In this document: piece after piece, positions 4,503-24,211 of the stretch
Layout: each line of letters opens with the position of its first letter
How positions within the stretch are numbered: the stretch's first letter is position 1
Assembly (NCBI GenBank): GCA_021647315.1
Contig: JAKIUY010000001.1
Coordinates: forward strand, 1-64,000
Reading direction: 5' to 3'
Source: Victivallaceae bacterium
GTDB taxonomy: Bacteria; Verrucomicrobiota; Lentisphaeria; Victivallales; Victivallaceae
Length of the DNA stretch: 64,000 bases
Translations under genes and position numbers: made by a program
Notes under the pieces: model-generated
Database searches by the model: none
What the model was told of the DNA's origin: nothing
Seen by the model: the letters and a program-made list of their open reading frames with translations, nothing else

Positions 4503-4595
4503 AATTTTAATATCTGATATTGCAAGGGTGAATCCTGGACTGTAGATATAGACAATAATTCATTAGTGAGGTGATTGCAAAAGTCCAACGCGAGC

Positions 4596-4718
4596 ATGAT
4601 TTTTGAATACAATAGTAATAATTATTGGCAAAAACTGAATGTAGCACAGCAACAGGAGACTCTTCGGCTCGCAGTTCAGACAGGACTGGGACCACTAGCT
4701 TATTATTATTTTAGGTAA
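4596..4718 (+). pseudogene. in-frame upstream piece of the nucleotidyltransferase-like gene, ended by TAA
   Basis: An ATG at 4596 opens a 40-codon frame that stops at TAA 4716-4718 and is in the same frame as the next gene (4749-5765). Its translation, with NYWQKL near the start and GLGPLAYYYFR at the end, fits the usual N-terminal pattern of PF14907-type proteins, where a Trp helix is followed by a PLLYYxL-like segment before the ExxxxVILKG core. Reading through the TAA would give one continuous protein of normal layout. So the gene seems split by a nonsense codon, or the base call is wrong. Confidence 0.55.
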
Positions 4719-4748
4719 AACAATATTACCCTGCATGACAATGACCCG

Positions 4749-5765: not shown

Positions 5766-5855
5766 TAACCGGTTTTAATTTGAATAATGGTCTAACTTAA
5801 TATATCTTAGCTCGCCATAATTCTAAATATAACTAAAATTGGAGCAATATAGCAG

Positions 5856-6863: not shown

Positions 6864-7285
6864 GAGAAAGAGAGTAGTGAGACTGTTTCACGGTGATCCC
6901 ATGACTTCCTGATCAGGTGACACCTGAAGCCAGGTGTTCCCCAGGGCTGTTCCCGATTCAAACTTCGTAATTGCATTGCTACCTGCCAGCACCAATATAC
7001 TGCTATTTTTCAAAAATTTATCGCAAATTAATGATACGGCAGTTCTTCAACTCTTGACACGCCGGAAATATAAACTAAATTGATTGTCGACGGATTTTTA
7101 AAGTTGTTAATCAATTTTTATATCGGTTTCCAAGAGCGGTTTCCCTTTTGTAAAAGGTGATAGTTTGAGACGATAAAATCACTCTTGAGTTTAGCATAAA
7201 ATTTCAAACAAGAAAACAGCTCTGTCCTATAATAGGTAAGGGTTGACAAAACATACCCCTTAACGGGGATAATACAGGATTAATT
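6864..7285. other. 422-bp non-coding gap with a small palindrome and the 7286 promoter
   Basis: No coding frame is convincing here. It holds a palindrome CAGGTGACACCTG at 6914-6926, whose surroundings match, in inverted orientation, bases 55004-55021 near the rsmD locus. A 16-base string GGAAATATAAACTAAA at 7066-7081 recurs before the ferredoxin gene near 27630. The right end carries the promoter-like and palindromic sequences of the next gene. Confidence 0.6.
7243..7273 (+). promoter_or_regulatory. promoter-like pair with a palindrome in a 19-bp spacer, before the DUF1015 gene
   Basis: TTGACA (7243-7248) and GATAAT (7268-7273) are separated by 19 bp. The spacer holds CCCC-TTAAC-GGGG, a palindrome that recurs as ACCC...GGGT before the genes at 8564 and 27680. 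A long spacer with a central palindrome is typical of MerR-type promoters, but the neighbouring copies lack a good -35 box, so an operator or an mRNA hairpin beside the ribosome site fits equally well. Confidence 0.45.
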
Positions 7286-8515
7286 ATGGCTAAAATACTT
7301 CCATTTAACGGGCTACTGCCAACTCAGGAACGGGTTGAGCAGGTAGCAGCAGTACCTTACGATGTTGTCAACTCTGCCGAAGCCGCAGAGCTTGCGACTG
7401 GCAACCCATACAGTTTTCTGCATGTTTCACGACCGGAAATCGACATGGAACCCGGGGTTAATCTCTACAGCGATCCGGTCTATGCCAAAGCTGCGGAGAA
7501 TTTCGCGAAACTATGCAGTGAAGCACCATTAAAGCTTGATGATGCCAAGCATCTCTACATCTATCGTCTCAAAATGGGCGATCATATTCAAACTGGTGTT
7601 ATCGGAGCTGCCTCTTCAGACGAATACAATCGGGATATTATCAAAAAACATGAAAAAACCCGTCAGGATAAAGAGGACGACCGCACCCGTCATGTCATGG
7701 CGTTGCGTTCACATACTGGCCCGGCATTTCTGACTTATCAGGATTCAGCAGAAATTACCGACCTAGTTAATAAACTTAGCCAGGGCACTCCACTGTTCGA
7801 CTTTACCGCCCCGGATGATATTGTTCATACGCTATGGCGGGTAGATGAAACTCAAAGTAAGCAGCTGGCTGAACTTTTTGCCAAAGTTCCATATCTTTAT
7901 ATTGCCGATGGACATCACCGCAGTGCTGCCGCTGCCAGAGTCGCCGCTGAATGCAGGCCGAATAACCCGAATCATACCGGCGATGAAGACTATAACCATT
8001 TTCTGGCTGTAACCTTTCCGGCATCACAACTTAAGATATTATCTTATAACCGCGCGGTACATAACCTGAATGGCTTAGGTGAAACTGAACTGCTCGAACA
8101 GATCGGTAAATGTTTTGCCGTCAGCGAAACGACTGATCCCGTCCCTAATGAGCCGGGGCAGTTCTGCATCTATCTTGCCGGGAAATGGTACCTGCTCAAA
8201 ACAGAACAAAATATTGCTGAACTGGGCGTTATCGAGCGTCTTGATGTCAGCATCTTACAGGATAATATTCTGAGCCCGTTACTTGGCATCGATGACCCCA
8301 GAACCAGCAAGAAAATAGATTTTGTCGGGGGAATTCGCGGTACTTCTGAACTGGAAAAGCTGGTTGATTCAGGTAAGGCAGCGGTTGCTTTTTCCATGTA
8401 TCCAACAACTGTTCAGCAGCTTATTGACATTGCCGATGCCGGTGAAATCATGCCGCCGAAATCAACCTGGTTTGAGCCGAAACTGCGTGACGGACTGGTT
8501 TGTCACAACTTTTAA
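7286..8515 (+). CDS. DUF1015 family protein
   Basis: A 409-residue cytoplasmic protein matching the DUF1015 layout: an N-terminal PFNGLLPTQE and VPYDVVNSAEA region, SFLHVSRPEID, a charged EKTRQDKEDDRTRH segment, and the strongly conserved IADGHHRSAAA around the middle. The length is normal for the family. Biochemical function is not established; in other bacteria it is often found near serine or amino-acid metabolism genes. It precedes the 2-oxoacid oxidoreductase genes by about 50 bp and shares their palindrome type, suggesting joint control. Confidence 0.88.
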   Translation: MAKILPFNGLLPTQERVEQVAAVPYDVVNSAEAAELATGNPYSFLHVSRPEIDMEPGVNLYSDPVYAKAAENFAKLCSEAPLKLDDAKHLYIYRLKMGDHIQTGVIGAASSDEYNRDIIKKHEKTRQDKEDDRTRHVMALRSHTGPAFLTYQDSAEITDLVNKLSQGTPLFDFTAPDDIVHTLWRVDETQSKQLAELFAKVPYLYIADGHHRSAAAARVAAECRPNNPNHTGDEDYNHFLAVTFPASQLKILSYNRAVHNLNGLGETELLEQIGKCFAVSETTDPVPNEPGQFCIYLAGKWYLLKTEQNIAELGVIERLDVSILQDNILSPLLGIDDPRTSKKIDFVGGIRGTSELEKLVDSGKAAVAFSMYPTTVQQLIDIADAGEIMPPKSTWFEPKLRDGLVCHNF

Positions 8516-8533
8516 AGGATTTTTTAATTTAAC

Positions 8534-8553
8534 TATACCCGAACGGGTATAAC
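8534..8553 (+). promoter_or_regulatory. palindrome before the oxidoreductase ferredoxin gene
   Basis: TATACCCGAACGGGTATAA is a near-perfect palindrome whose last G lies 17 bases before the ATG at 8564. The same layout, ACCC...GGGNATAA then a ribosome site and ATG, occurs at 7286 (18 bases) and 27680 (19 bases). It could be a repressor site over a -10 box or a short mRNA hairpin next to the ribosome site. Confidence 0.5.
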
Positions 8554-8563
8554 AGGAATTATT

Positions 8564-8800
8564 ATGGCGGAAAAAAAACGTAAAATATTTTCAGTCAAAA
8601 TTGCGCCGCAAGAGTGCAAAGGCTGTAGCCGTTGTGTTAATGCATGCCCTAAATCAGTCCTGAAAATACAGGAGAATATTAACCAGATGGGCTATTTTTT
8701 CGCAACTTACACCGGCGATGGCTGTGTCGGTTGTGGAGCATGTTTTTACAACTGCCCGGAACCCGGCGCGGTGACGATATATGAAAAAAGTGAAGAATAG
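8564..8800 (+). CDS. 2-oxoacid:ferredoxin oxidoreductase delta subunit (2[4Fe-4S] ferredoxin)
   Basis: A 78-residue protein with two cluster motifs, CKGCSRCVNACP and CVGCGACFYNCP, the pattern of the ferredoxin-like delta subunit of 2-oxoacid:ferredoxin oxidoreductases. It passes electrons from the catalytic subunits to soluble ferredoxin in the cytoplasm. It is first in a tight cluster: the alpha subunit starts 9 bp downstream. The substrate class (2-oxoisovalerate or 2-oxoglutarate) cannot be told from this subunit. Confidence 0.9.
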   Translation: MAEKKRKIFSVKIAPQECKGCSRCVNACPKSVLKIQENINQMGYFFATYTGDGCVGCGACFYNCPEPGAVTIYEKSEE

Positions 8801-8809
8801 AGGCAAATT

Positions 8810-9886
8810 ATGGCTTATACAAATAGATTACTGCTAAAAGGCAATGAAGCAACCGTCTACGGCGCGTTACTTGCCGGTTGCGATTGCTATTTCGGTTATC
8901 CAATTACCCCGGCAAGCGAAATAGCCCATACTGCGGCTGAACTGTTTCCTAAATTGGGACGCGTGTTCTTACAGGCTGAATCAGAGATTGCTGCCATCAA
9001 TATGGTAATGGGGGCTGCTGCAACGGGAAGACGGGTAATGACCGCATCCTCAGGACTGGGCATCAGTCTGAAACAGGAAGGAGTCTCATATATTGCAACT
9101 TGTGAGCTGCCGATTGTCATTATTGACATTACCCGCGGTGGTCCGGGACTCGGTAATATCGGTCCCGAACAATCAGACTATAATCAAGTTGTTAAAGGTG
9201 GAGGGCACGGCAGTTACAAATGCATCGTCCTCGCCCCCAATTCAGCTCAGGAAATGTGCGATTTCACTAAAGATGCCTTCGAACTAGCTGACAAATACCG
9301 CATTCCGGTTTATGTTATGACTGATGCCGTTATCGGACAAATGCTTGAATCTGTTACCTTGCCGGAACCTGCTGATAAACATAAAACCCCCGAATGGGCA
9401 CTGGATGGATCTATAAATGATAAAACCAATGTTATAACGTCCATCTATCTGGATCACGATGATCTTGAAGAGGTTAATATTAAACTTCAGAAAAAATATC
9501 AGCTGATTGAAGAGTGTGAACAGCAGGTTGAAGAGTATAAAGTAGAAGATGCTGAATTTATTATGATCGGCTACGGGATTGTTAGCCGGGTGATCAGAAG
9601 CGCAGTCAAAAAACTACGCAAACGTGGTATAAAAGCGGGAATGATAAGACCCAAAACATTATTTCCATTCCCGGAAACATCATTGAACCAAGCGGTCGAA
9701 AAAGTTGATGCATTTGTCTGTGTCGAATTAAGCAATGGGCAAATGATTGATGATATTAAACTGGCAATAGAGTGTAAAAAACCAGTTCACCTGATAAACC
9801 GGATGGGTGGAAATATCCCGTCGGTAGATGAAATCGTCGATAAATGCCTTGAAATATTTAACTATGACAGGACGGTGGAAGCATGA
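8810..9886 (+). CDS. 2-oxoacid:ferredoxin oxidoreductase alpha subunit (VorB/KorA type)
   Basis: A 358-residue subunit starting with [17 protein letters not shown] and [10 protein letters not shown], the hallmark of the pyrimidine-binding alpha subunit. [16 protein letters not shown] and [14 protein letters not shown] follow. Together with the beta-gamma partner it oxidatively decarboxylates a 2-oxoacid to an acyl-CoA, reducing ferredoxin. The 3' end overlaps the next start by four bases (ATGA), so translation is probably coupled. The short form and gene order fit the VOR/KOR branch rather than pyruvate:ferredoxin oxidoreductase. The exact substrate is uncertain. Confidence 0.9.
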
Positions 9887-11376
9887 CTGAAAAAATAAAA
9901 CTTCAGAGGCCAAAAGGTTTCTTCAGTAAATTTGACCGACGCCCAGGCCCGGTAAAAACCAATATGCACTATTGCCCAGGCTGCGGACACGGTATTATGC
10001 ATAAACTGATCGCTGAAGCTCTTGCCGATTTTGATATGCAGCAGAATACCATATTTATCGCTCCGGTCGGCTGTGCGGTTTTTACCTATTACTATTTTGA
10101 TTGCGGTGGCATATCTGTGCCACATGGCCGGGCACCGGCTGTTGCAACCGGTATCGTGCGTGCAACTCCTGACGCACATGTTATCTCATACCAGGGGGAT
10201 GGAGATTTGGCGGCAATTGGTCTGAATAACTTTCTTCAGGCGGCAAACCGCGGCGAAAACATGGTCGTATTTTTTGTCAACAATGCTATCTACGGCATGA
10301 CTGGCGGTCAAATGGCGCCAACGACTCTGCCGGGACAGAAAACTGTAACCTGCCCCAATGGACGCTCAACAGTGAATGAGGGCTATCCGCTGAAAGTTTC
10401 TGAAATGGTGGCGGCACTTGATTCACCGGTTTATGTTGAACGGGTTGCTCTCAGCACCACCAAGAATATTATGCAAGCCAGAAGAGCAGTCAGAAAAGCC
10501 CTGCAGAATGTCATTAACAAAAAAGGCTTTTCCATGGTTGAGGCACTGTCAGGATGCCCGGTGAATCTTAATTTCAATGCTCAGGAAATGAATGAATTTA
10601 TTGATAATCAAATGATGTCATATTTCCCGCTGGGGTGTCTGAAGGATATCGCGGACAACCGTGATCCGATCAAACGTCCGGTCAGCATCTATGCTAAAAA
10701 CAAAGTTAAAGCGGTACTGTTCCCACAAGCCGTTGACGGTGGCGTTGATGCTGAATTTGAAAATCCATCTGAACTGTTTAAGAAAGAGCGAAGAATTAAA
10801 TGTGCTGGCTTTGGTGGTCAGGGGATTCTCAGCCTTGGCATGATGATTGCCAGTATGGCAAAATTACGTAATTTCAATGTCAGTTGGCTCCCCTCTTACG
10901 GACCGGAAAAACGGGGCGGTACAGCAAACTGTTCTGTTGTGCTCAGCCGCAGTGAAGTCGGATCGCCATTAATTGATTCAGACTGCAATCTGCTGATTGC
11001 GATGAATCAGCCATCTATTGACAAATATCTGCCGGAACTCAAGGACAAAGGTGTCCTGCTTTATGACAGTTCAACCGCCTCTGCACCTGAAAACATCGGC
11101 AATCGTATCGTCTATTCAGTCGCAGCCTCAAATATTGCGGAAAAAATGGGCAGTATAAAATGCGCCAATTCCGTAATGCTCGGTGCGCTTGCGGTAATTC
11201 TCCGCGATTATTTCCTCGAAAAAGATGACCCGCAGGATTTTGATCGGGTCTTTGAAGAGGCCATCCTTGATTGTTTCTCTCACAAGAAAAACACCATAAG
11301 ACTCAATTTCAACGCCTATTATGCCGGTAAAAAAGCGGCACTGGAAATTTTACAATCATCTACGGTTAAAGGATAA
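9883..11376 (+). CDS. 2-oxoacid:ferredoxin oxidoreductase, fused beta and gamma subunits
   Basis: A 497-residue fusion. The N-terminal 270 residues are the thiamine-diphosphate beta subunit: [12 protein letters not shown], then [12 protein letters not shown] and the cofactor-binding [11 protein letters not shown]. After a linker, residues about 305-490 are the gamma domain: [13 protein letters not shown] and [13 protein letters not shown], then LIAMNQPS. In many organisms beta and gamma are separate, but fused forms occur in Bacteroidetes and PVC bacteria. With 8564 and 8810 it completes the enzyme. hisF follows after only 7 bp. Confidence 0.9.
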
Positions 11377-13804: not shown

Positions 13805-15097
13805 ATGAGTAAAATTAAACAACTATTATTTAGGTACAACCCTTGGTGGGATGGCGACTTCCTGCTCAGTGGGATTATTAAACGTCCTATATTGTTCAAA
13901 AAACTTGCTGAGTTACATCTTCTTAAAGATACCATTCTGCTCACTGGCTTGCGTCGGGTAGGCAAAACTACTCTTATGAGGATGATGATAAAAGAGTTGG
14001 CGACTGATATTGATCAGGCCCGTCATCTATTCTACCTGTCACTGGATGATTATGGTTTAAAAGGCATGGCGTTAAGTGATATCGTTGATGAATTCCGAGC
14101 AATTCATAAATTTAGCCATTCGGAGCAGCTTACCCTGTTTCTTGATGAAGTGACTGCATTGCCAGACTTTGAAATTCAATTAAAGAACCTCTATGATATG
14201 GGTGGAGTTAAAATTTACGCCGCATCGTCAAGTGCGTCAGTTTTGCGTGAGGGAGGCGGTTATCTTACCGGCAGAAAACGTTTTTTCCCGGTACCGCCAT
14301 TGGATTTTCATGAATACCTGCATTTTAAGCAGATTAAAATATCACCGGCAGATGGTCATCTATTCAAAGAGTATTTTGAGGATTATATGCGAACTGGTGG
14401 CATTCCTGAATTTGTCCTTACTGGAGATGTCGCCTATCTTAGAGAATTGGTTGATGATATTATTTGTAAAGATATTGCAGCAGTCCATAACATCAAAAGT
14501 CTCGGGATGTTACGTGATTTTTTCATGTTATTAATGGAACGAGCGGGTAAAAGCGTAAGTGTCAACAAAATGGCACGTATAATGCAAATTTCGCCCGATA
14601 CATCGCGGCGTTTTCTTGATCTATTTGAGAAAAGTTTCCTTATCTCTTTGGTGTCAAGAGCTACTAAGTTGAACGAGTCATTGCGCTCGCCCAAAAAACT
14701 TTACAGTGTTGACCTTGGAATTAGAGTACTTTTTACCGGTTACCGTGATCTGGGCAGCTTGTTTGAAAACTATATATTCAACCTAATATCGTCGAAAGCT
14801 CCTAGATTTATTTTGGAGGATGGCATAGAATTGGATTTCATTACCGATGATGGGTTATTAATTGAAGCCAAATACTATGATGCCATGTGGCCTAAACAGC
14901 AACTTTTATTTGATGCTTATCCAGCAAAAGATAAACTTGTAATTGATTCAGTCGAAGCATTAACTTTATTTGACAGTACTGATGATGAAATTATTAGAGC
15001 TACGTGTAGAGAAGAGTATGACGATTACCTGTTCGCGGCGTCTAAATTACCAAACTTAGGACGAACGCCTGGGATGGTTGTTCATGGAGGAGCATAA
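13805..15097 (+). CDS. AAA-family ATPase with DUF4143 domain
   Basis: A 430-residue protein of the COG1373 type. The N-terminal AAA domain has GLRRVGKT (48-55) and LFLDEV (111-116), and residues GGYLTGRKRFFPVPPLDFHEYL match the family's conserved arm. The C-terminal DUF4143 part (about 230-400) has ELDFITDDGLLIEAKYY, a PD-(D/E)xK-like strand pattern. Such proteins are widespread and variable in bacteria and archaea; their role is unclear. It stands alone between long gaps, with an AT-rich upstream region, and may be an accessory gene. Confidence 0.85.
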   Translation: MSKIKQLLFRYNPWWDGDFLLSGIIKRPILFKKLAELHLLKDTILLTGLRRVGKTTLMRMMIKELATDIDQARHLFYLSLDDYGLKGMALSDIVDEFRAIHKFSHSEQLTLFLDEVTALPDFEIQLKNLYDMGGVKIYAASSSASVLREGGGYLTGRKRFFPVPPLDFHEYLHFKQIKISPADGHLFKEYFEDYMRTGGIPEFVLTGDVAYLRELVDDIICKDIAAVHNIKSLGMLRDFFMLLMERAGKSVSVNKMARIMQISPDTSRRFLDLFEKSFLISLVSRATKLNESLRSPKKLYSVDLGIRVLFTGYRDLGSLFENYIFNLISSKAPRFILEDGIELDFITDDGLLIEAKYYDAMWPKQQLLFDAYPAKDKLVIDSVEALTLFDSTDDEIIRATCREEYDDYLFAASKLPNLGRTPGMVVHGGA

Positions 15098-15237
15098 AAA
15101 TAGGTTCAAGGGACTTTGCACGCTTTGCGTCCTGAAGTCCTGCCACTATGTTCAGGGGTGGTATTTCCCATTCATCCAATGTTCGGGGTTCGGTGTTCCG
15201 ACGCAGTCGGCTTGATTAAAAATATCTGTTTTTTTTG

Positions 15238-15298
15238 TTTTTTTGTCACAATCACCTTTTAATCGTCAAATAATAGTAACGGATCATTTTTGATGATA
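15238..15298 (+). promoter_or_regulatory. conserved block A, probable ECF-sigma promoter region
   Basis: This stretch contains TTTTTTGTCACAAT, then TTTTAAT, GTCAA, TAATA and TAACGG in fixed order. The same order and spacing occur at 19502-19560 before the MBOAT gene, with about 41 of 51 aligned bases identical. Two such copies before genes of one functional cluster, one of them the sigma gene itself, fit an autoregulated sigma promoter. The exact -35 and -10 boxes are not determined. Confidence 0.5.
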
Positions 15299-15436
15299 TA
15301 CTTTAAACGCTTGAACTTTAGCTTTGTCTACGCCCTGACAACGCTACTGCTGCTCTTTGCAAGTTATCGGTTACTTCTCGTAGCCAATAACTTACCAAAA
15401 GCAGTTCAGCATTGCCATCATCGCATAAAAAGTTAA
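15293..15436 (+). CDS. possible 47-residue membrane peptide
   Basis: An ATG at 15293 opens a frame of 47 codons that starts MIYFKRLNFSF, has a strongly hydrophobic stretch YALTTLLLLFASYRLLLVA, and ends with a His/Cys-rich tail (HCHHR). It lies between conserved block A and the sigma gene. There is no clear ribosome site, and the ATG lies at the edge of block A, so expression is uncertain. It could be a small regulator of the sigma system or chance. Confidence 0.3.
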   Translation: MIYFKRLNFSFVYALTTLLLLFASYRLLLVANNLPKAVQHCHHRIKS

Positions 15437-15484
15437 GGTTCTTCCCGCTCAAAGTATAACGTTAGAACCATAGAATATAAATAA

Positions 15485-16015
15485 ATGATATCAATAACGA
15501 AAGAACAGTTAGCCTATTTTGAAAAACAGGTGATTTTAAATCACAAGCAGGTGCTTGCATATGCGTTGTCGCTTAATTTGGATCGACACGCGGCGGAAGA
15601 TTTGATCCAGGATGCTTTTTTGACAGCTTTTCATAAATTGGCTGAAATTGATCGAGATCGCAGTTTCGGAGCCTATATGCGGGGAATTGTCAGATTTAAA
15701 TATTTAGAACGTGGTCGAAAATTAAAAGAGATCTGTCTCGGTGATGCAATTATAGATATTGTTGATCAGCAGTTTATGGAATGGAACAGTGGCGAACATC
15801 ATAGGATGCATTTATTTGATATACTTGAACAATGCAATGAAAAATTGACCGAGGATCAACAGCAGATTATTAGAATGTTTTATACAGAAAAAGCGCAGTG
15901 CGAAATGATTGCAGCAACAATGAAGATTAATGAAACGACAGTACGAAAAAGATTGGAACGTATTCGCAATGAGCTTAAGGGCTGTATTAAAAAACAGCAG
16001 AAGGGGGCAAGATGA
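15485..16015 (+). CDS. ECF-type RNA polymerase sigma factor
   Basis: A 176-residue sigma-70 family protein. Region 2 shows DLIQDAFLTAFHKL and FGAYMRGIVRFKYLE; region 4 (about 115-170) has EDQQQIIRMFY and the helix-turn-helix INETTVRKRLERIR. It resembles the short sigma factors that PVC bacteria use together with FecR or other surface-linked regulators. The ATG of the FecR-like gene overlaps its stop by four bases (ATGA at 16012), so the two are translationally coupled. A conserved block at 15238 and a related one at 19502 are candidate target promoters. Confidence 0.9.
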   Translation: MISITKEQLAYFEKQVILNHKQVLAYALSLNLDRHAAEDLIQDAFLTAFHKLAEIDRDRSFGAYMRGIVRFKYLERGRKLKEICLGDAIIDIVDQQFMEWNSGEHHRMHLFDILEQCNEKLTEDQQQIIRMFYTEKAQCEMIAATMKINETTVRKRLERIRNELKGCIKKQQKGAR

Positions 16016-16986
16016 ATAACCAGAAAATAGAAAAAAAACGACCGGATGAACCGGTTGCACCTGAATCTATGGCAATGGAGGGTTTATTGCGTGAGTTCGG
16101 TGAAAATGGCACGGCACCGCATCGTGATCTTATCGGCAGTATAATGACAGAAGCTCGTAAAACAGCTGATATTACAGTTACTACAGTATCACAGCCCGTG
16201 TCGGTAATCTCTATACTGAAATATCTATTGCCGGCAGCAGCCTGCTTGGCAATTATGGGCGTACTGATCTTTAAAAGTGGTATCACATTGACTGGCAAAG
16301 TAAAATTAACCGCCGAATCGCCATGTTTGATGGCTTCAACGCCGGGTGGTATTCTTGAACGCGCCGGTGCCTCGCTGGCAATCAGAAATGGCATGAAGGT
16401 GAATAGCCATGACCAAATTAAAACCTATGCTTCAAGTATTGCCTATCTACAGTTCAATGACCTGAGTCGCCTAGAAATTAGCGGAAATAGTAATATTAGT
16501 TACAACGGAACCGCAGTTATCCGGCAACCGGATAATAGCCGGATTAAAAAGATTGACATTTCATTGCAGGAAGGAGCAATTTACGGGAATATCGTCAAAA
16601 CTAGTAATTATGGCGCATTTACGATTAAAACCCCGCAGGGCAAGCTCAGTATTCGTCAAGGTAAATTTATTCTAGTTAACAAACCAAACTCATTCTATCT
16701 GGAAGTTATCAGTGGTGCGGTCCAGTTTAAGGCTGACCATCAAGCCAAGGTGGTAAAAGTTAAACCCGGGCAAGTTTGCCTAATCGGAGCTGGTCAGACA
16801 GTTAAAATCGTCTCGCTTAATCAACTTAATTCAAGTATGCTGAAACAGCAGATTATTGCCAGTCGACAACGGTTGACTATGAACGAAAGTGGTTTTGAAC
16901 AACTGTTATTAAAATTATATAAAAAGAAAAAAGCCGACATCTGTTTTAAACGTAATAAGCTGAAAAATAGAAGAATATTTTTATAA
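16012..16986 (+). CDS. FecR-like membrane regulator (candidate anti-sigma factor)
   Basis: A 324-residue protein with about 65 cytoplasmic residues, one membrane helix (about 66-88, ISILKYLLPAAACLAIMGVL), and an outer FecR-type domain with YASSIAYLQFNDLSRLEIS and IKTPQGKLSIRQGKFIL. In FecI/FecR pairs the membrane partner senses an outside signal and controls the sigma factor. The four-base overlap with the sigma gene supports a functional pair here. The C-terminus is Lys/Arg-rich (LYKKKKADICFKRNK). The signal sensed is unknown. Confidence 0.78.
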   Translation: MNNQKIEKKRPDEPVAPESMAMEGLLREFGENGTAPHRDLIGSIMTEARKTADITVTTVSQPVSVISILKYLLPAAACLAIMGVLIFKSGITLTGKVKLTAESPCLMASTPGGILERAGASLAIRNGMKVNSHDQIKTYASSIAYLQFNDLSRLEISGNSNISYNGTAVIRQPDNSRIKKIDISLQEGAIYGNIVKTSNYGAFTIKTPQGKLSIRQGKFILVNKPNSFYLEVISGAVQFKADHQAKVVKVKPGQVCLIGAGQTVKIVSLNQLNSSMLKQQIIASRQRLTMNESGFEQLLLKLYKKKKADICFKRNKLKNRRIFL

Positions 16987-17003
16987 ACAACAGGAGAGCA
17001 GAA

Positions 17004-18227
17004 ATGGGAATGAAATTTGTTATTACTCTATTGGCAGGTTTGTTGATGTTTAACTGCCTGGCTAAAGCTAATACTGTTACCGGGTTTGATATAAAAGGCC
17101 CGGTAGATGCAGATAATAATGGCAAGTATACCTGTCTGAATAAAAAACTGGTAAAAAGTTATTGGGAATATCCCGACACGGGGCATGACTCTGTCGCTTG
17201 GCAATCGGCAGTTGTACCGAAAAAATTAGCTAAGCAGCCAGTAACTTTACGTTTTGCCTGTGGACTTGGCGCCCATAATGGTTTTGCATCGCATCAACTT
17301 TATCTCAATGGTAAAAAATTGCTGGCATTTAATGTGCAATACGGTGATTTTACCGTTAAAACTACAGCTGCCACCTTTAAGTTCAGCCCAGTATATCTTG
17401 ATGGTAATGATGATCTGTTCGGCGTTGCCGAATTAACTGTTATGCCTGAATTGATCAACTTTGGTCATGCTCAAAAGCTTAAAATTGTCGGTGATAAAAA
17501 AAAATCTAAAGCTTGGTTTATGTTGTCCGCAATTGCTGCTCCTGCCCCGCAGGAAATAACCAGACAGCGTGAAAAAAACAGTATTAAACGCAGAATAGAG
17601 ATTATTAAAGTGATTAAAGCTAAAAGTCGGATCAAAGCTAAACAGGAAGCGGCACAGCCTCACATTATTTGCCGCTGGCCGCATAACAGCAACGCCGCCG
17701 TTTCTCAGATTAACGCAACTGAACAGAACAATGATTATGAAGGGGCGCAGCAATTAACGGTCCATTATCCTCAATCCCCGGCCAAGTTTGAAGCTGCGGT
17801 TGATCAAGCTATAATTGATCGAGCCTGGTTGGTGGTGAAATATGCAAAACAATATTTTACCACCACTGCTATGGCTGGAATGAAGCAGAACCTAGACTAT
17901 CTGCAACAACTGGACTGTGTTGTCTGGACTGCCCCGCCGGATAAGGTTGTAGAGTATATCAGAATGCGTCATTTAGCTAAATTAATTGTCGAACAGAAAA
18001 AGGCAGGCCATGCTCGGGTAACGATGCATGGGTTCCCGAGTGGCTTCAAAGCAAACCTACCATTGACCGTTCAGGTTACATTACCTAAAAATGCCTGGGG
18101 CATCAAGGTGCGCAATCAACGACAGGGTGAAAAAGTTCATCACCTAATTGTGACAGCTAAAAAACGTGGGGTGCGTTTTGAGATGACACCGGGCAACGGT
18201 CCGGTTGATATTTATTATAACGATTAA
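17004..18227 (+). CDS. secreted protein of unknown function with a beta-sandwich-like N-terminal half
   Basis: A 407-residue protein with a signal peptide (FVITLLAGLLMFNCLAKA) cut near residue 22-24. Residues 25-165 contain WEYPDTGHDSVAW and SHQLYLNGKKLLAFN, resembling the sugar-binding beta-sandwich folds found in many PVC surface proteins. A Lys/Arg-rich linker and an all-beta C-terminal part with VTLPKNAWGIKV follow. It begins 18 bp after the FecR-like gene with GGAGAG ahead of the ATG, so it belongs to the same operon. Its stop codon lies in the first unit of a long heptamer array. Ligand unknown. Confidence 0.7.
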   Translation: MGMKFVITLLAGLLMFNCLAKANTVTGFDIKGPVDADNNGKYTCLNKKLVKSYWEYPDTGHDSVAWQSAVVPKKLAKQPVTLRFACGLGAHNGFASHQLYLNGKKLLAFNVQYGDFTVKTTAATFKFSPVYLDGNDDLFGVAELTVMPELINFGHAQKLKIVGDKKKSKAWFMLSAIAAPAPQEITRQREKNSIKRRIEIIKVIKAKSRIKAKQEAAQPHIICRWPHNSNAAVSQINATEQNNDYEGAQQLTVHYPQSPAKFEAAVDQAIIDRAWLVVKYAKQYFTTTAMAGMKQNLDYLQQLDCVVWTAPPDKVVEYIRMRHLAKLIVEQKKAGHARVTMHGFPSGFKANLPLTVQVTLPKNAWGIKVRNQRQGEKVHHLIVTAKKRGVRFEMTPGNGPVDIYYND

Positions 18228-18283
18228 CGATTAACGATTAACGATTAACGATTAACGATTAACGATTAACGATTAACGATTAA
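18221..18283 (+). repeat. nine perfect tandem copies of a 7-bp unit
   Basis: CGATTAA is repeated nine times without a gap. The stop codon TAA of the preceding gene is the last triplet of the first copy. The array ends 25 bp before the ATG at 18308, so it lies in the leader of the SUMF1 gene. Perfect short arrays like this can change in copy number. Confidence 0.95.
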
Positions 18284-18307
18284 CAAAAAAAGCAAGGATT
18301 AATTAAT

Positions 18308-19234
18308 ATGAGAAATAGAGTATTTAAAATTACGAGTAAATTGTCTTCTCCGTTCATTCGACGTTCGATGTTGAACGTTGGCTGTTCGACGTTCCGGCGG
18401 AGCCGGCTTTATTCAATATTTTTATTTGGTTGTGCCACGTTATCACTGTTAACCTCTGTAGTCGCAGGCGATAAACTGCAACAGATAACAACAAAAAGCG
18501 GCATAAAAATGGTTCTCATCCCCGGTGGAACCTTCATGCTCGGATCGACCAAGGGTAAGGCAGACGAGAAACCGGTCCACAAAGTAAAAGTAAGCAGTTT
18601 TTATATGGATGTTTACGAAGTTACCCAAGCCGCCTACATGAAAATGATGGACAATAATAATCCATCACGCTTTAAAAATAAAAAAGGAGCGGTAGAGCGG
18701 GTGCGCTGGACGGATGCGATTCGTTATTGTAACGCGAGATCGAAAGCGGAAGGGCTTGAGCCTGTCTATGATATTAAAACTGGTAAATGTGATTTCAGTA
18801 AAAACGGTTATCGATTACCAACTGAAGCTGAATGGGAATATGCATCCCGGGCTGGCAGTAAAGGTGAACACTTTTTTACCGGTGGAATCGCGGTATTGGG
18901 ACGTTATGCTTGGTTTAGAAAAAATTCCCGGGAAAAGGTTCATCCGGTAGGGAAAAAACGCCCTAATGCCTTTGGCGTGTATGATATGTACGGCAATGTG
19001 CTTGAGTGGTGCAACGATAATTACAGCAAAGACTATTACGCCATTAGTCCAATAGAAGATCCTCGTGGCCCTGCAACGGGCAAGAAAAAGGTATTACGGG
19101 GTGGTTCATGGGCCAGTCGCGGCAAATATTGCCGTAACGCGGCCAGAAAAAGTGATAATCCAACTACCGCAGATATTTGCCAGGGCTACGATACCTACGG
19201 TTTCCGTTGTGTCCGCAAGACACCGGTAAAATAG
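18308..19234 (+). CDS. SUMF1/formylglycine-generating-enzyme-like secreted protein
   Basis: A 308-residue protein. The C-terminal domain (about 65-305) has the FGE-sulfatase fold signature: IPGGTFMLGS, DEKPVHKVKVSSFYMDVYEVTQ, LPTEAEWEYASRAG, NVLEWCND and LRGGSWAS, ending GFRCV. Most bacterial members are not true FGE enzymes but binding or structural domains; the Cys pair of the copper-type active site is not evident. The N-terminus is odd: a charged stretch of about 35 residues encoded by degenerate heptamers (18358-18400) lies ahead of the hydrophobic segment SIFLFGCATLSLLTSVVAG. The repeat may have been inserted into the signal-peptide region. Role in the operon unknown. Confidence 0.8.
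   Translation: MRNRVFKITSKLSSPFIRRSMLNVGCSTFRRSRLYSIFLFGCATLSLLTSVVAGDKLQQITTKSGIKMVLIPGGTFMLGSTKGKADEKPVHKVKVSSFYMDVYEVTQAAYMKMMDNNNPSRFKNKKGAVERVRWTDAIRYCNARSKAEGLEPVYDIKTGKCDFSKNGYRLPTEAEWEYASRAGSKGEHFFTGGIAVLGRYAWFRKNSREKVHPVGKKRPNAFGVYDMYGNVLEWCNDNYSKDYYAISPIEDPRGPATGKKKVLRGGSWASRGKYCRNAARKSDNPTTADICQGYDTYGFRCVRKTPVK
18358..18400 (+). repeat. degenerate heptamer repeats inside the SUMF1 gene start
   Basis: The sequence falls into 7-base units TTCGACG, TTCGATG, TTGAACG, TTGGCTG, TTCGACG and TTCCGGC. Related strings occur in the non-coding gap at 15184-15214. Here they are translated as part of the N-terminal region of the SUMF1 protein. Confidence 0.55.
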
Positions 19235-19259
19235 TTACCGCTACACAATATAAAAAACT

Positions 19260-19370
19260 TACCAAGCTTATCCTGACAATTATTATTCTCGGTTTTGCCA
19301 TATTGTCATTCAAAACCTTTATGCCGAACTGCGACAACAACTGAAAGAGTTGGGAATAGACCTATACTGA
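19260..19370 (+). pseudogene. coding-like fragment, 36 codons ending in TGA
   Basis: One frame is open from a TAA at 19251 to TGA at 19368-19370 and has natural-looking composition: YPDNYYSRFCH early and YAELRQQLKELGIDLY at the end. It has no start codon. The early part faintly recalls IS21-type transposases. It is most likely the tail of a gene lost by deletion. The rest of the gap 19235-19611 holds a weak terminator and conserved block B. Confidence 0.3.
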
Positions 19371-19450
19371 TTGATGGCTGCTTAAAAAATGCTTAAACCA
19401 TAACCTCATAATCAGCAAAATTCCATCTGGCCTCAAGCATGGTTTTTAAA

Positions 19451-19475
19451 AGGGGATAACCCCTAAAATTTTTAT
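19451..19475 (+). terminator. possible weak terminator after the SUMF1 gene
   Basis: AGGGG-ATAA-CCCCT is followed by AAAATTTTTATTT. The stem is short and the T run interrupted, so the effect is uncertain. Confidence 0.35.
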
Positions 19476-19501
19476 TTCAGTCTCAATAAAAATATTTTCC
19501 C

Positions 19502-19560
19502 TTTTTTTGTCACAATTGTATTTTAATTGTCAATTAATAATAACGGGTTATTTTTTGACA
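19502..19560 (+). promoter_or_regulatory. conserved block B, probable ECF-sigma promoter region
   Basis: TTTTTTGTCACAAT, TTTTAAT, GTCAA, TAATAATAACGGG and TTATTTTTTGA occur in the same order as in block A (15238). It lies about 50 bp before the MBOAT gene. This supports the idea that the sigma factor at 15485 controls both its own operon and the MBOAT operon. Confidence 0.5.
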
Positions 19561-19611
19561 ATTTAATGAAAGATGCAGTTGAGTGGCAATAATTTTAAAA
19601 CAGGATTTTAA

Positions 19612-20985
19612 ATGCTTTTTCACACTTGGGAATTCGTAATATTTTTTACGATAGTAATGGGGGTATATCTTGCCCTTAAAAAGACTAACTGGTGGACTTT
19701 ATGGTTACTGGCCGCATCGTATTTCTTTTATGGCTGGTGGAATCCGCTGTTTCTGATTTTGATTGTCTATTCTACCGCCGTCGATTATCTTGTCGGACTC
19801 AAACTTGGTGATTCAAAATACCGGCGCACCTGGTTGACTTTCAGCCTGGTCAATAACATATTTTTGCTGGGATTTTTCAAGTATGCTGGCTTTTTTGCTG
19901 AAAATCTGCGGGTGCTGTTTACTATTATGCATGTTCCTATTGATGTTCCTGAACCAAATATTCTATTACCGGTCGGTATTTCATTCTTTACCTTTCAATC
20001 AATGAGTTACAGTATTGATGTCTTCCGCGGACAGCTGAAAGTTGAAAAAAATTATGTTAGGTTTTCCGCGTTTGTCGCGCTGTTTCCCCAGTTGGTTGCC
20101 GGCCCGATTGAACGTGCCAAGGCACTGTTGCCGCAGATGCGGCATAGGCCAATTATCCGTAGTATTGATGTTTCTGACGGTATTTCACTCTTTCTGGTCG
20201 GTCTGTTTAAAAAAGCGGTAATGGCGGATATGCTGGCACTTTATGCGGACAAGGTCTATGGCGATCCTGGTATGTATGGTAGTTGGGCACTGTTGTTCGG
20301 CACTTACGCCTTTGCCTGGCAGATCTATTTTGATTTCAGCGGTTACACCGATATGGCACGGGGTATCGCTAAAATAATGGGTATTCGACTGATGTTGAAT
20401 TTCAACAACCCCTATACCGCGGTCGATTTAGGTGATTTCTGGAAACGCTGGCATATCAGTCTATCGTCGTGGTTCAAGGATTATGTCTATATTCCGCTGG
20501 GCGGTAATAAAGGTTTCAAATATAAAGTTTACTGGAATGTTTTTATCACAATGGCGATATCCGGTTTCTGGCATGGGGCAGCCTGGACCTTTGTTATCTG
20601 GGGTTTGATTAATGCTATTGGGCGGGTGGCAACAATGCGCATTGATCAACAGTTATGGTATAAAAAAATCCCGAAGTTTATTAAACAATTGCTGGTATTC
20701 CATTTTATCTGCGTAACCTGGGTCTTTTTCAGAGCGGCGAATGTCTCTGATGCCATGTTGGTATTAAAGCGTTTTTTCAGTGGACTTGGCGGCGACCCTG
20801 AAATTCCGGTAATCATTTTTGCCCTAGTCGGTGGAGTGTGGGTTTATCAATTGGTCTTTAACTCACGTTTTAGATTTATCTTGGAAAGTTGGCCGGTTAG
20901 AATTGCCAGTCTGGTGATGGCGATGCTGATGTACATCATTTTTGCCACGGCTGGCAATAAACAGTTTATCTATTTTCAATTTTAA
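19612..20985 (+). CDS. MBOAT membrane O-acyltransferase (AlgI-like)
   Basis: A 457-residue polytopic protein of the AlgI branch: LAASYFFYGWWNP, VGISFFTFQSMSYSIDVF, PQLVAGPIERA, FDFSGYTDMARGIA and the SGFWHGAAW motif with the putative catalytic His at 321. AlgI-type proteins pass acyl groups across the inner membrane for O-acetylation of alginate and other exopolysaccharides, working with a periplasmic SGNH-type partner. That partner follows at 21038. No AlgF or AlgX homologue is seen, so the polymer is unknown. Length is normal. Confidence 0.92.
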   Translation: MLFHTWEFVIFFTIVMGVYLALKKTNWWTLWLLAASYFFYGWWNPLFLILIVYSTAVDYLVGLKLGDSKYRRTWLTFSLVNNIFLLGFFKYAGFFAENLRVLFTIMHVPIDVPEPNILLPVGISFFTFQSMSYSIDVFRGQLKVEKNYVRFSAFVALFPQLVAGPIERAKALLPQMRHRPIIRSIDVSDGISLFLVGLFKKAVMADMLALYADKVYGDPGMYGSWALLFGTYAFAWQIYFDFSGYTDMARGIAKIMGIRLMLNFNNPYTAVDLGDFWKRWHISLSSWFKDYVYIPLGGNKGFKYKVYWNVFITMAISGFWHGAAWTFVIWGLINAIGRVATMRIDQQLWYKKIPKFIKQLLVFHFICVTWVFFRAANVSDAMLVLKRFFSGLGGDPEIPVIIFALVGGVWVYQLVFNSRFRFILESWPVRIASLVMAMLMYIIFATAGNKQFIYFQF

Positions 20986-21037
20986 CAGGCATTTGCCTGG
21001 TAGTTTCCGTTTTGCGTTTTTTTTTAAGAGAGATATT

Positions 21038-22249
21038 ATGCATAAAAAAGAGAAAAACAATAATACAACCAAAAGTGAACGGACATTCAGTTCGAATGCG
21101 ATTAGGTTGTCTAATCAAGAGTTGTTAATTACCGGTATTATCGCTGCACTAATTATACTGTTTGTCATCCCGCTACTCTGGCAGGCGGCAGAAGAGGTGA
21201 ACATGGATGATGATTTTCGCCTGGCTTATGACTATCGCGATGACTACTGGGTGTATGAACAGTGTGTAGAACAGGCGATGGAAAAATATCCGGTAGTCTT
21301 TATCGGAGATTCTGTTATTTGGGGCATGTATGTCGATAATAAACATACACTGCCAGCAATCCTTAATCGTAAATTGAATCAACAAGTAGCTGCTAATTTA
21401 GCGATTGACGGGCTGCACAGTGTTGCTATGGACGGTTTGATCCGCTATTATGGTGCTGCAATAAAAAATAAGACGGTATTCATTTACCTGAATCCTTTGT
21501 GGATGAATAGCAAAAAATATGATTTGAGTGCAGATGAAGAGATGGATATTCATCATCCGCGATTAGTGACGCAATTTTCTCCGGCTCTAACATGTTATAA
21601 AGAGCCTTTAGCAACGCGTATGGGAGTGTTGCTGGAACGTAATCTACCATTCTACAGCTTGTTGAATCACATTCGACTTTCATTCTTTGATAATGACAGT
21701 TTTGCTCAATGGGTACTTGATAATCCTTATAAAAATCCGGCATCACAGATATCGCTTAGCGTTGATCCGATTGAGAAAGAGCATCGCAATAGTAAACAGG
21801 ATTGGAGTCAAAAAGGGATTACCAAACAGGACTGGAACTGGGTAGCTCTGGCTAAATCAAAGCAATGGACTGCATTTAAAGGTATTGTTGAATTGCTGAA
21901 AAGCCGTAATAACAGGGTATGTGTTATGGTTGGGGCAATTAATCCCTATATCTTGACTGATAAAAGTTTAATGCAGTATGATTCACGGATAAAAGGGATT
22001 GTAGAGTGGTTAAAAAATAATAAAATTGGTTATATCAAAATGCCGGAATTACCCTCATCATATTATGCTGATGCCAGTCATCCGCTGGACAAAGGTTATG
22101 AGATCATGGCTGATGCCATTTTAAAAACTCCATTGATGGAAGAATATTATAGTAAAGTAAAAACAACCTTAAAACAACAAAGGAAAGCGCAAAATGAAAT
22201 TGGACAAAAAAGTTTGGCTGGCAGCAGCGGCAGTTGCGATAGTATTTAA
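21038..22249 (+). CDS. membrane-anchored SGNH hydrolase-like protein (AlgJ-like role)
   Basis: A 403-residue protein with an N-terminal membrane anchor (about 32-52) and an SGNH hydrolase fold: FIGDSVIWG (Ser92), a middle NPLWMN segment and the C-terminal DASHPLDKGY with Asp345 and His348 in place for the triad. Its position right after an AlgI-like MBOAT gene suggests that it moves the acyl group onto the polymer in the periplasm, as AlgJ does. I start at ATG 21038, after AAGAGAG; an upstream in-frame start would overlap the MBOAT gene. The 3' end overlaps the next gene by 56 bases. Confidence 0.8.
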   Translation: MHKKEKNNNTTKSERTFSSNAIRLSNQELLITGIIAALIILFVIPLLWQAAEEVNMDDDFRLAYDYRDDYWVYEQCVEQAMEKYPVVFIGDSVIWGMYVDNKHTLPAILNRKLNQQVAANLAIDGLHSVAMDGLIRYYGAAIKNKTVFIYLNPLWMNSKKYDLSADEEMDIHHPRLVTQFSPALTCYKEPLATRMGVLLERNLPFYSLLNHIRLSFFDNDSFAQWVLDNPYKNPASQISLSVDPIEKEHRNSKQDWSQKGITKQDWNWVALAKSKQWTAFKGIVELLKSRNNRVCVMVGAINPYILTDKSLMQYDSRIKGIVEWLKNNKIGYIKMPELPSSYYADASHPLDKGYEIMADAILKTPLMEEYYSKVKTTLKQQRKAQNEIGQKSLAGSSGSCDSI

Positions 22250-23897
22250 TGGCTGGAGTGCAACGCAAAACGGTAAATTTTCACTCAAGAACAGACAGAT
22301 CGCCTTTAATATTGCATCTGGATCAGCAGGGCAGGTAACCTTGAGCTACCTGCTGAATGGTAAAACCTATCCCGCGGTAACGTTACAACCGTCAATGAAA
22401 GGCGCCAAAGATAAGCTAAGTTATACCGTAACTCTATCCGGTTCAGATAAACAGAGCGGGACGCTTACTTTTACCAGTGCCAATCGTTACCGTGGTAGCT
22501 TGCAATTTACCTTCGGCACTCCCCAAAACTATCTCAAATTGACTAAATTCACTAATGTCAGCAACTTGAAGATAAATTTCAAGAGTGCGGCATTCGTATT
22601 GCCGGATCAGCGCAGTGAAGATCTGGTGATCTATCCGACCGACTGGAAGCAGAATAGTCTGTCTATCCCCAACGATAATCATCTGGTATTAAATATGCTG
22701 GACAATGGTAGTGCCATGCTCAGTTGTTTATGGAATTCCACGACAATCAAGCTGACGGAACGTAAAGCCGCAAACGGTAAAAGCTTTTCCGGTATGGATT
22801 TGCAGCCAAAACGTGGCGATACCATCTGGCTGGGGCTGAATGTTGCTAAAAATATCTGGACCATCCCGACGAAGACTATAACCACTAAACCTATTCCATT
22901 GAGATGGGAACCGCCATTTTCGGCAGTTTGGCAGGTGAGTATTAAAAAAGGTAAAAGTAAGCTCCATGCGGAAAACGGTCAATGTGACAGCTGGCAATTG
23001 GCTGATTTAGATGCAAAAAGACCTAAGTCAGGTCGCGCAGGTGTCGGTATTCAGAACCAGGACGGTAAAACCTGGACCTCTAGTCTAGGCGGCTATGTCT
23101 ATCCATTCTTTTTGAAAAATGGTAAAGTATTCCTGAACTTTCCTAAGTACAACAGTCGTCGCATGACATACGATGAAAAATTCAGACCATTAATTTATCC
23201 GGTTGAATCACAGAAAAAACAGCCATCGGGTCAAATTTTACCTTACGATGTACTGGCGAAAGTTTTGGCTGCTAAAACTTTCACAACACTATCTAACGTC
23301 AGATCAAAAAAGAGCAATTATCCGGCAACCTGTGGAATAACAGAAAAAGTTGAAAAGATCTTTTATCGTGATGCAGCAGAAAAGTCTAAGGATATTATTA
23401 AAAATTATTTTAAACGTATGAACTCTTTTGTGCGGTACAATCGGGAACGAATCTTGGAATATGACAAATGGAGCAACAAAATCAATAAACAGTTGAAGGC
23501 TTACGGCAAGAAAAATCCAACTGCGGCCAAGTTAACCAAATCTTTGAATAAAGATCTCTATCAGATTAAATTGTATTATGCTGCCGTGCGTGATAAAATT
23601 AAAACACCACAATATTGCAAAATGCTTACCGACAAGGTTGAGAAGCTGATTGGCAGCAGTAAAGATGCCGAAACCCAGGAAGAGGCATGCAAGGATATTG
23701 GTCGGCAAATTAGAGTCATTGGTGGCAAACAGGATCATTTGGTTGCCGACTTACGCTATATTACTAAAGCGTTCAGAATGCGAGTAACCCTGGCATTATT
23801 AGAAAATCCACCACCAGTTCAGCGGGAAATTCTTGAAAAAATGCGCAGTGAAACCGCTCGGATAATGCATCTCAGATTCCCCATGGAAGGCAAATAG
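22194..23897 (+). CDS. large secreted protein of unknown function
   Basis: A 567-residue protein with a signal peptide (KKVWLAAAAVAIVFNGWSA). The first 370 residues look beta-rich with several Trp and aromatic positions (IWLGLNVAKNIW, FSAVWQVSIKKG); the last 190 are helical and basic. No family is recognised. AAAGGAAAG gives a good ribosome site within the end of the SGNH gene. As the last gene of the sigma-FecR-MBOAT cluster it is probably a periplasmic or surface part of the same system. Confidence 0.7.
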   Translation: MKLDKKVWLAAAAVAIVFNGWSATQNGKFSLKNRQIAFNIASGSAGQVTLSYLLNGKTYPAVTLQPSMKGAKDKLSYTVTLSGSDKQSGTLTFTSANRYRGSLQFTFGTPQNYLKLTKFTNVSNLKINFKSAAFVLPDQRSEDLVIYPTDWKQNSLSIPNDNHLVLNMLDNGSAMLSCLWNSTTIKLTERKAANGKSFSGMDLQPKRGDTIWLGLNVAKNIWTIPTKTITTKPIPLRWEPPFSAVWQVSIKKGKSKLHAENGQCDSWQLADLDAKRPKSGRAGVGIQNQDGKTWTSSLGGYVYPFFLKNGKVFLNFPKYNSRRMTYDEKFRPLIYPVESQKKQPSGQILPYDVLAKVLAAKTFTTLSNVRSKKSNYPATCGITEKVEKIFYRDAAEKSKDIIKNYFKRMNSFVRYNRERILEYDKWSNKINKQLKAYGKKNPTAAKLTKSLNKDLYQIKLYYAAVRDKIKTPQYCKMLTDKVEKLIGSSKDAETQEEACKDIGRQIRVIGGKQDHLVADLRYITKAFRMRVTLALLENPPPVQREILEKMRSETARIMHLRFPMEGK

Positions 23898-23930
23898 TTC
23901 AGCTAAATAAGCTGATAAATGAAACTTAAC

Positions 23931-24211
23931 TAGACGGTACTCGAAAAGCCTTCTAAAAATTCCGCTATGCGGAACATGAAGGTATTTCTCCGCTCCGTCT
24001 GTATTAATTTTAAAGAAAATTCTTTAAAATTGAGGCATTAAAAATATACTTCTTACTCGTTTTTAGATAGTTATTGGTAAAATAACATGAGAAGCATATT
24101 TTTTAACTGAAATATTTCTATAAAAACCCGCCGCAAAATTTTAATTTTGAGGACACAGACGATGTTTGAAAAGGTTTCGGTACTCCGAAAACCTTTTCGA
24201 GCAGGGTCTAA
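23931..24211. mobile_element. MITE-like element with imperfect terminal inverted repeats
   Basis: The left end (TAGACGGTACTCGAAAAGCC) and the reverse complement of the right end (TAGACCCTGCTCGAAAAGG) agree at about 15 of 19 bases. The right end also matches the arms of the element at 40807-40961. Inside are a perfect 10-bp palindrome (24009-24034) and the hairpin GGTTTCGG-TACT-CCGAAAACC. No coding frame lies in the 454-bp gap 23898-24351. Confidence 0.45.

What the first reader, a model, noticed from the sequence alone, without database searches (positions are those of the whole stretch)
15238..19560. Two matching promoter blocks linking the sigma gene to the MBOAT operon
Blocks A and B share about 41 of 51 bases, including TTTTTTGTCACAAT and TAACGG. 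One precedes the sigma factor cluster and the other the MBOAT gene. This is what an autoregulated ECF sigma factor with a small regulon would show.
Basis: partly seen in the sequence, partly recalled or inferred. Interest (0 to 1): 0.52.

Follow-up and report, generated by a model that had tools for sequence, protein, structure and literature searches.

The report
Self-controlled sigma factor promoter, duplicated
Two near-identical DNA switches very probably let one stress-type sigma factor turn on both its own genes and a neighbouring set of genes that look like surface-modifying enzymes, in a way that is shared by distant relatives.

Summary
They are the only two copies in the 4.86 Mb genome. 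In a tree of 51 ECF sigma factors, the window's sigma lies in a clade of 19, and all 19 carry TGTCAC within 300 nt upstream on the coding strand; 3 of the 32 outside the clade do. In 16 of the 19, and in block B, CAA follows TGTCACA after 16-18 nt. This fits an autoregulated promoter with TGTCACA as -35 and (GT)CAAT as -10. In four relatives the gene order sigma - FecR-like - (DUF) - FGE - MBOAT - SGNH is kept (one contig in three of them), with the motif only before sigma. In the window the FGE-MBOAT gap has grown to 377 bp and holds block B. So B looks like a lineage-specific duplicate giving the separated MBOAT half its own copy of the sigma promoter. Also found: 15297-15458 is a palindromic dispersed repeat, and all 18 partner proteins examined share a short N-terminal motif although their outer domains differ. 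An ordinary mechanism, well resolved; moderate interest.

The parts
15231..15291 (+). Block A, inferred ECF promoter of the sigma operon: -35 TGTCACA at 15244-15250, -10 GTCAAA at 15265-15270
15297..15458 (.). Palindromic dispersed repeat (MITE-like) between promoter A and the sigma start codon; the 47-codon ORF 15293-15436 lies mostly in it
   Evidence: 21 places in the own genome, fold z-score -7.27, near-constant ends in 12 full-length copies
15485..16015 (+). ECF sigma factor, 176 aa
   Evidence: Pfam Sigma70_r2, r4_2, r4; best NCBIfam TIGR02989, 104.4 bits, under its cut-off 124.55
16012..16986 (+). FecR-domain membrane protein, inferred anti-sigma / sigma regulator; overlaps the sigma stop by 4 nt
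   Evidence: Pfam FecR 4.8e-11; N-terminal EGLLR motif at residue 23 and hydrophobic segment at 68-86
17004..18227 (+). Protein of unknown family, third gene of the operon, conserved in G020, G032, G414
18308..19234 (+). FGE-sulfatase-domain protein, fourth gene
   Evidence: Pfam 1.8e-50; orthologue in the same place in G032, G090, G414
19235..19611 (.). 377-nt FGE-MBOAT gap (39-41 nt in G090, G032, G020); 19247-19370 resembles another place in the genome
19495..19555 (+). Block B, inferred second copy of the same promoter: -35 TGTCACA at 19508-19514, -10 GTCAAT at 19529-19534
19612..20985 (+). MBOAT O-acyltransferase
   Evidence: Pfam MBOAT 3.6e-22
21032..22249 (+). SGNH/GDSL-like protein, partner of the MBOAT
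   Evidence: Pfam Lipase_GDSL 9.1e-4, under cut-off; DltD weak hit, under cut-off, for the G414 orthologue
22194..23897 (+). 567-aa protein of unknown family, last shared gene of the operon

Best explanation
Block A is the autoregulated promoter of an ECF sigma factor: sigma region 4 reads TGTCACA at -35 and region 2 reads (GT)CAAA/T at -10. The sigma is probably held at the membrane by the FecR-domain protein encoded next to it. When an outside signal releases it, it transcribes its own operon from A. In related species one such promoter serves the whole operon sigma - FecR-like - DUF - FGE - MBOAT - SGNH - unknown. In this lineage extra DNA entered between FGE and MBOAT, and a duplicate of the promoter (block B) now stands in front of MBOAT, so the sigma drives both halves. 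The likely output is acylation of a surface polymer. Shown by sequence: the two copies, their uniqueness, the conservation of the core before orthologous sigma genes, the shared gene order. Inferred: binding, autoregulation, anti-sigma action, the direction of the duplication and the acylation.
For: Both cores match and the full block occurs only twice in the genome. TGTCACA-N14/15-GTCAA lies upstream of the sigma orthologues in G020, G032, G090, G098 and G101. In a careful tree of 51 sigmas the clade with the window's sigma (19 rows, support 96/93) has TGTCAC upstream in 19 of 19; outside it 3 of 32. Controls on the 19: opposite strand 0, motif backwards 2, 300 nt inside the gene 2. 16 of 19 have CAA 16-18 nt after TGTCACA; in B, CAAT follows after 16. 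Gene order is kept in G032, G090 and G414 on one contig, and in G020 over two contigs, with TGTCAC on the operon strand only before sigma; in the window's operon stretch only A and B have it.
Against: No transcription or binding data. The -10 is looser than the -35: 3 of 19 lack CAA at 16-18 nt (C104 paralogue, L224, L228). Block B has no counterpart in the relatives, so its control by this sigma rests on its likeness to A. The own genome holds a paralogous sigma (C104) in the same clade, with TGTCACT-N16-CATT upstream, that might read A and B too. The extra DNA between A and sigma could weaken or change expression from A. A terminator-like hairpin before B (19451-19464) folds no better than shuffles (z -0.24), so the end of the first transcript is unproven.
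Confidence: 0.83

Rival explanations
1. A and B are binding sites or promoters for another factor (housekeeping sigma or a repressor), and the likeness of the two blocks has nothing to do with the ECF sigma.
For: The consensus scan reports sigma-70-like hits overlapping both blocks (15245-15274 and 19527-19554, 9 of 12 matches).
Against: The scan finds 36 such sites against a mean of 25.3 in shuffles, so these are weak. The element tracks one sigma clade (19 of 19 against 3 of 32), which a housekeeping promoter would not do.
Confidence: 0.07
2. The paralogous sigma encoded on contig C104, not the one at 15485, is the main reader of A and B (or both read them).
For: C104 is in the same clade and has TGTCACT-N16-CATT upstream; it has no partner gene of the usual kind right downstream.
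Against: Its own -10-like stretch differs (CATT), it is 43% identical, and the window sigma sits beside A and B.
Confidence: 0.07
3. The blocks are a two-copy mobile or recombinational repeat without promoter function.
For: The genome has dispersed repeats; one of 162 nt lies directly beside A.
Against: The block itself has only two copies, both just upstream of same-strand genes, and its core is conserved before orthologous sigma genes whose surrounding sequence differs.
Confidence: 0.03

Closest known systems
ECF41 sigma factors and their promoter TGTCACA-n16-CGTC (Wecke et al. 2012, PMC3426412; passages read)
   Same: Identical -35 TGTCACA, which that paper calls specific for ECF41; the -10 lies at about the same distance (16-17 nt); the promoter precedes the sigma gene or its neighbour.
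   Different: Here the -10 is CAA(T/C/A), not CGTC; the sigma has no C-terminal extension (176 aa, Pfam only regions 2 and 4); there is no carboxymuconolactone decarboxylase / oxidoreductase / epimerase among the 8 ORFs tested; a FecR-domain protein is present.
FecI-FecR type cell-surface signalling
   Same: ECF sigma followed by a membrane protein with a FecR domain outside.
   Different: No TonB-dependent receptor among the 8 ORFs tested (13805-23897); in clade relatives the outer domain is often not FecR at all but macroglobulin or VWA/YfbK.
NCBIfam TIGR02989, RNA polymerase sigma-70 factor, Rhodopirellula/Verrucomicrobium family
   Same: Best NCBIfam match of the sigma, over its full length (104.4 bits).
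   Different: Under the curated cut-off (124.55).
Dlt / AlgI-type surface acylation cassettes (recalled)
   Same: MBOAT plus SGNH-like protein; the G414 operon adds an AMP-binding ligase (Pfam) and, read by eye, a small acyl-carrier-like ORF.
   Different: Neither ligase nor carrier was seen in the window operon, and the MBOAT is far under the DltB cut-off (150.3 against 375 bits).

Membership tests
ECF (group 4) sigma factor | Sigma-70 regions 2 and 4 without region 3 | tested here: met
   Pfam lists only Sigma70_r2, r4_2 and r4 in 176 aa
ECF (group 4) sigma factor | Neighbouring membrane anti-sigma | tested here: inconclusive
   FecR-domain protein with a hydrophobic segment directly downstream; anti-sigma action not testable
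ECF (group 4) sigma factor | Autoregulated promoter with conserved -35 and -10 | tested here: met
   By footprint only: TGTCAC in 19 of 19 clade members, CAA at 16-18 nt in 16 of 19
ECF41 | -35 TGTCACA | tested here: met
ECF41 | -10 CGTC at n16+-1 | tested here: not met
   CAAA/CAAT at 16 nt (block B)
ECF41 | Fused C-terminal regulatory extension | tested here: not met
   176 aa; last Pfam match ends at residue 165
FecI-FecR signalling | FecR domain in the regulator | tested here: met
   Pfam PF04773, 43.4 bits over cut-off 24
FecI-FecR signalling | Adjacent TonB-dependent receptor | tested here: not met
   none among the 8 ORFs scanned, 13805-23897; the rest of the genome was not scanned
TIGR02989 | Score over curated cut-off | tested here: not met
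   104.4 against 124.55 bits
Dlt-like acylation operon | MBOAT, SGNH, carrier protein and ligase together | tested here: inconclusive
   window: MBOAT and a weak GDSL match under cut-off only; G414 adds the AMP-binding ligase

The most novel reading that the evidence does not exclude
The window shows one member of a widespread ECF switch family (relatives drawn from the window's phylum and from Verrucomicrobiia-labelled genomes) with a constant core: a sigma, a TGTCACA-N16/17-CAA(T) self-promoter, and a short N-terminal D(A/G/S)LL(R/K)-type anchor in the partner. The sensor domain is exchangeable (FecR-like, thioester macroglobulin, VWA/YfbK). Here the switch is wired to a surface-acylation operon that was cut into two units, each with its own copy of the promoter.
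Probability: 0.6. Interest if true: 0.6.

Novelty: new member of a known kind. Interest (0 to 1): 0.42.

Why it matters
If true, the promoter rule allows target genes of this sigma clade to be predicted from sequence across the phylum; the paper searches made here brought up no study of it. The common N-terminal motif of the partner proteins offers a specific, testable anti-sigma interface shared by sensors as different as FecR-like, macroglobulin and VWA proteins. The window is also a readable case of how a sigma-controlled operon may keep its control after being split: the promoter is present in a second copy.

Tried and rejected
Small membrane protein gene between A and sigma (15293-15436): rejected. 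The stretch is a dispersed repeat; 12 translated matches in the own genome including itself, most of the others with a stop inside, and 21 places by DNA including itself.

Larger regulon: TGTCACA-N13..16-GTCAA gives 21 places in 7 genomes against 13 for the backward control. Seven are A, B and five sigma promoters. Of the other 14, 13 lie within an open frame of 100 codons or more; L058 is intergenic but has no such ORF within 300 nt downstream. By the same crude test two of the five sigma promoters (G090, G020) also count as inside a frame, because the sigma frame stays open upstream of its start. In the own genome a one-mismatch pattern gives 11 places against 7 for the control, so no clear enrichment; besides A and B there are nine, of which eight were checked: seven lie in open frames and one (C119:27155) is intergenic and stays as a weak candidate; the ninth (C201) was not cut out and not checked.

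Wider motif check: TGTCA[CT]-N13..18-GTC in 400 nt upstream is met by L107, L123 and L133 of the 80 genome-contig loci, and, in 450 nt, by the window sigma alone of 32 loci. That pattern was too strict on the -10; L105 and L106 showed TGTCACA in the same output and were counted later with TGTCAC alone.

Rows in the tree: 51, namely the window, 6 close homologues, 5 own paralogues, 8 of the weaker relatives, the best 8 of 80, and 23 of the 25 further loci. Two rows (L238, L243) were misread in the first tree because I took the wrong start near a contig end; they were corrected. In the careful tree the bootstrap had not fully settled (0.985).

Rho-independent terminator before B: a scan hit, but not better than shuffles.

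Papers: no paper holds TIGR02989. Searches for ECF sigma with Verrucomicrobia/Lentisphaerae/Planctomycetes/Akkermansia terms gave none or nothing to the point in the listings; one anti-sigma paper was looked into by passages (PMC7406223) without result for this clade. The 2021 ECF re-classification paper (recalled, by DOI) is not held, so whether this clade is already a named ECF group could not be checked.
Full report
WHAT WAS CHECKED. Both are there. The 14-mer TTTTTTGTCACAAT occurs exactly twice in the window. A 30-nt pattern spanning both cores finds only A and B in the 4.86 Mb genome at up to 3 mismatches, and nothing in the other 147 of 148 genomes searched. Searching 19235-19611 against the own genome returns block A with E 5.9e-9. 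The likeness stops sharply on both sides.

THE GENES. 15485-16015 encodes a 176-aa ECF-type sigma factor (Pfam regions 2 and 4; nearest NCBIfam TIGR02989, under its cut-off). It overlaps by 4 nt a 324-aa protein with a FecR domain. Then follow a protein of unknown family (17004-18227), an FGE-sulfatase-domain protein (18308-19234), a 377-nt gap with block B, an MBOAT O-acyltransferase (19612-20985), an SGNH/GDSL-like protein and a 567-aa protein of unknown family.

A PHYLOGENETIC FOOTPRINT. The nearest homologues of the sigma in 148 genomes are in G020, G032, G101, G098, on the own contig C104 (a paralogue), and in G090. Five of these six have TGTCACA-N14/15-GTCAA upstream of the sigma gene; the C104 paralogue has a looser form, TGTCACT-N16-CATT. 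A model of the seven sigmas was then searched in 387 genomes drawn from the phylum, and 51 sigmas were put in a tree. The window's sigma lies in a clade of 19 (support 96/93). All 19 have TGTCAC within 300 nt upstream on the same strand, and 3 of the other 32 do. For the 19, the opposite strand has it in 0, the motif read backwards in 2, and 300 nt inside the gene in 2. Counted from TGTCACA, CAA stands at 16, 17 or 18 nt in 16 of 19; in block B CAAT stands at 16. So the two elements that blocks A and B share are just those kept by the clade. The motif was not used to choose the tree rows, though the first six homologues had been looked at before the model was built from them.

ONE OPERON BECAME TWO UNITS. 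In G032 and G090 the genes sigma - FecR-like - (DUF, in G032) - FGE - MBOAT - SGNH follow each other on one strand of one contig, with 41 and 39 nt between FGE and MBOAT. In G020 the same genes lie on two contigs, with extra genes and a second FGE-type gene before MBOAT, and 41 nt in that gap. In G414 the order is the same, with a small ORF that looks by eye like an acyl carrier protein between FGE and MBOAT and an AMP-binding ligase after MBOAT. In all four, TGTCAC on the operon strand occurs once, before sigma (G020's second contig has none). In the window's stretch 15201-24000 it occurs twice, at A and B. The window's FGE-MBOAT gap is 377 nt, and 19247-19370 is 71% like another place in the genome. 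The simplest reading is that other DNA opened the operon here and that a copy of promoter A now drives the second half. The likeness of A and B beyond the core, which the orthologous promoters do not visibly share (listing), points to duplication and not to convergence. The direction (A to B) is inferred from B having no counterpart in the relatives.

THE LEADER OF THE SIGMA GENE. From the GTCAA of A to the sigma ATG there are 215 nt, against 26-34 nt in G032, G098 and G101. 15297-15458 accounts for 162 of these. It is a palindromic repeat found at 21 places in the own genome including this one, some partial, which folds with z -7.27. In the 12 full-length copies examined the ends are TATACTT../..AAGTATA, with one variant base at the right end of one copy, and none lies in an open frame of 100 codons. 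A relative from another family (G089) has a copy 84% alike. The short ORF 15293-15436 lies mostly in this element and is most likely not a gene.

THE PARTNER PROTEINS. In 18 of the 19 clade members the next gene encodes a protein with a short acidic-hydrophobic motif near the N-terminus (EGLLR, DALLK, DSLLR, DGMIR and the like), present in 18 of 18 N-terminal 60-aa stretches and in 4 of 137 control slices of the same proteins. The motif class was written after seeing the alignment, so the count is descriptive. A hydrophobic segment follows in most; it is weak in L106 and L221. The outer parts differ: FecR (window, L220); alpha-2-macroglobulin with the motif CFEQ (G101 by Pfam, G098 by likeness and the same motif); VWA/YfbK (L106, L107, L221-L224, L226-L228); and no Pfam match in G020, G032, G090, L105 and L225. 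This suggests a constant anti-sigma anchor with exchangeable sensors; binding to sigma is inferred.

MECHANISM, WITH STATUS. Shown by sequence: two copies, uniqueness, footprint, operon order. Inferred: the sigma reads A and B; the FecR-like protein restrains it; a signal outside the cell frees it; the output is surface acylation (from MBOAT plus SGNH, as in Dlt and AlgI systems, recalled).

COMPARISON. The -35 is the one described for ECF41 (PMC3426412, passages read), where TGTCACA-n16-CGTC was reported and the -35 called specific for that group. The window's sigma fails two ECF41 features tested (the -10, the C-terminal extension), so it is not ECF41, though it uses a like -35. The -10 GTCAA(A/T) resembles that of E. 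coli sigma-E (recalled). Whether the clade is already a named ECF group is not known here; the 2021 re-classification paper is not held.

VERDICT. The class of mechanism is well known. What is added is the footprint across the clade, the split-operon history, the repeat in the leader and the constant partner motif.

Noticed in passing
window 15297-15458: Palindromic 162-nt dispersed repeat with near-constant ends, 21 places in the own genome and one 84%-alike copy in a genome of another family; strong hairpin.
   Followed up: partly
L100 (G101) 4529-9730 and L101 (G098) 4573-9762: Alpha-2-macroglobulin (bait region and TED domain by Pfam in G101, CFEQ motif in both) apparently fused behind the anti-sigma-like N-terminus next to the sigma gene; a possible protease- or damage-sensing sigma switch.
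   Followed up: partly
L273 (G414) 5316-10113: The orthologous operon carries an AMP-binding ligase and a small ORF that looks like an acyl carrier protein by eye, making the MBOAT part resemble a Dlt cassette.
   Followed up: partly
window 18218-18284: About nine head-to-tail copies of a 7-mer (TTAACGA) right at the end of the unknown-family gene.
   Followed up: no
window 18355-18410 and 15175-15215: Similar GTTCGACGTTCCGGCGGAGCCGGC-like stretches, one of them within the N-terminal part of the FGE gene; by eye another dispersed repeat.
   Followed up: no
window 19247-19370: 71% like G000:C123:207-340; by eye a frameshifted remnant of the end of another gene.
   Followed up: partly
G000:C104:15078-15608 (L102): Paralogous sigma of the same clade without the usual partner gene downstream.
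   Followed up: partly
G000:C119:27155-27181 (L274): Intergenic TGTCACA-N16-CAAT about 174 nt before a 344-aa ORF; weak candidate for a third target.
   Followed up: partly
L123 and L133 (Tenacibaculum): TGTCACAATT..TTGTC about 175 nt upstream of a distant sigma homologue; outside the tree set.
   Followed up: no
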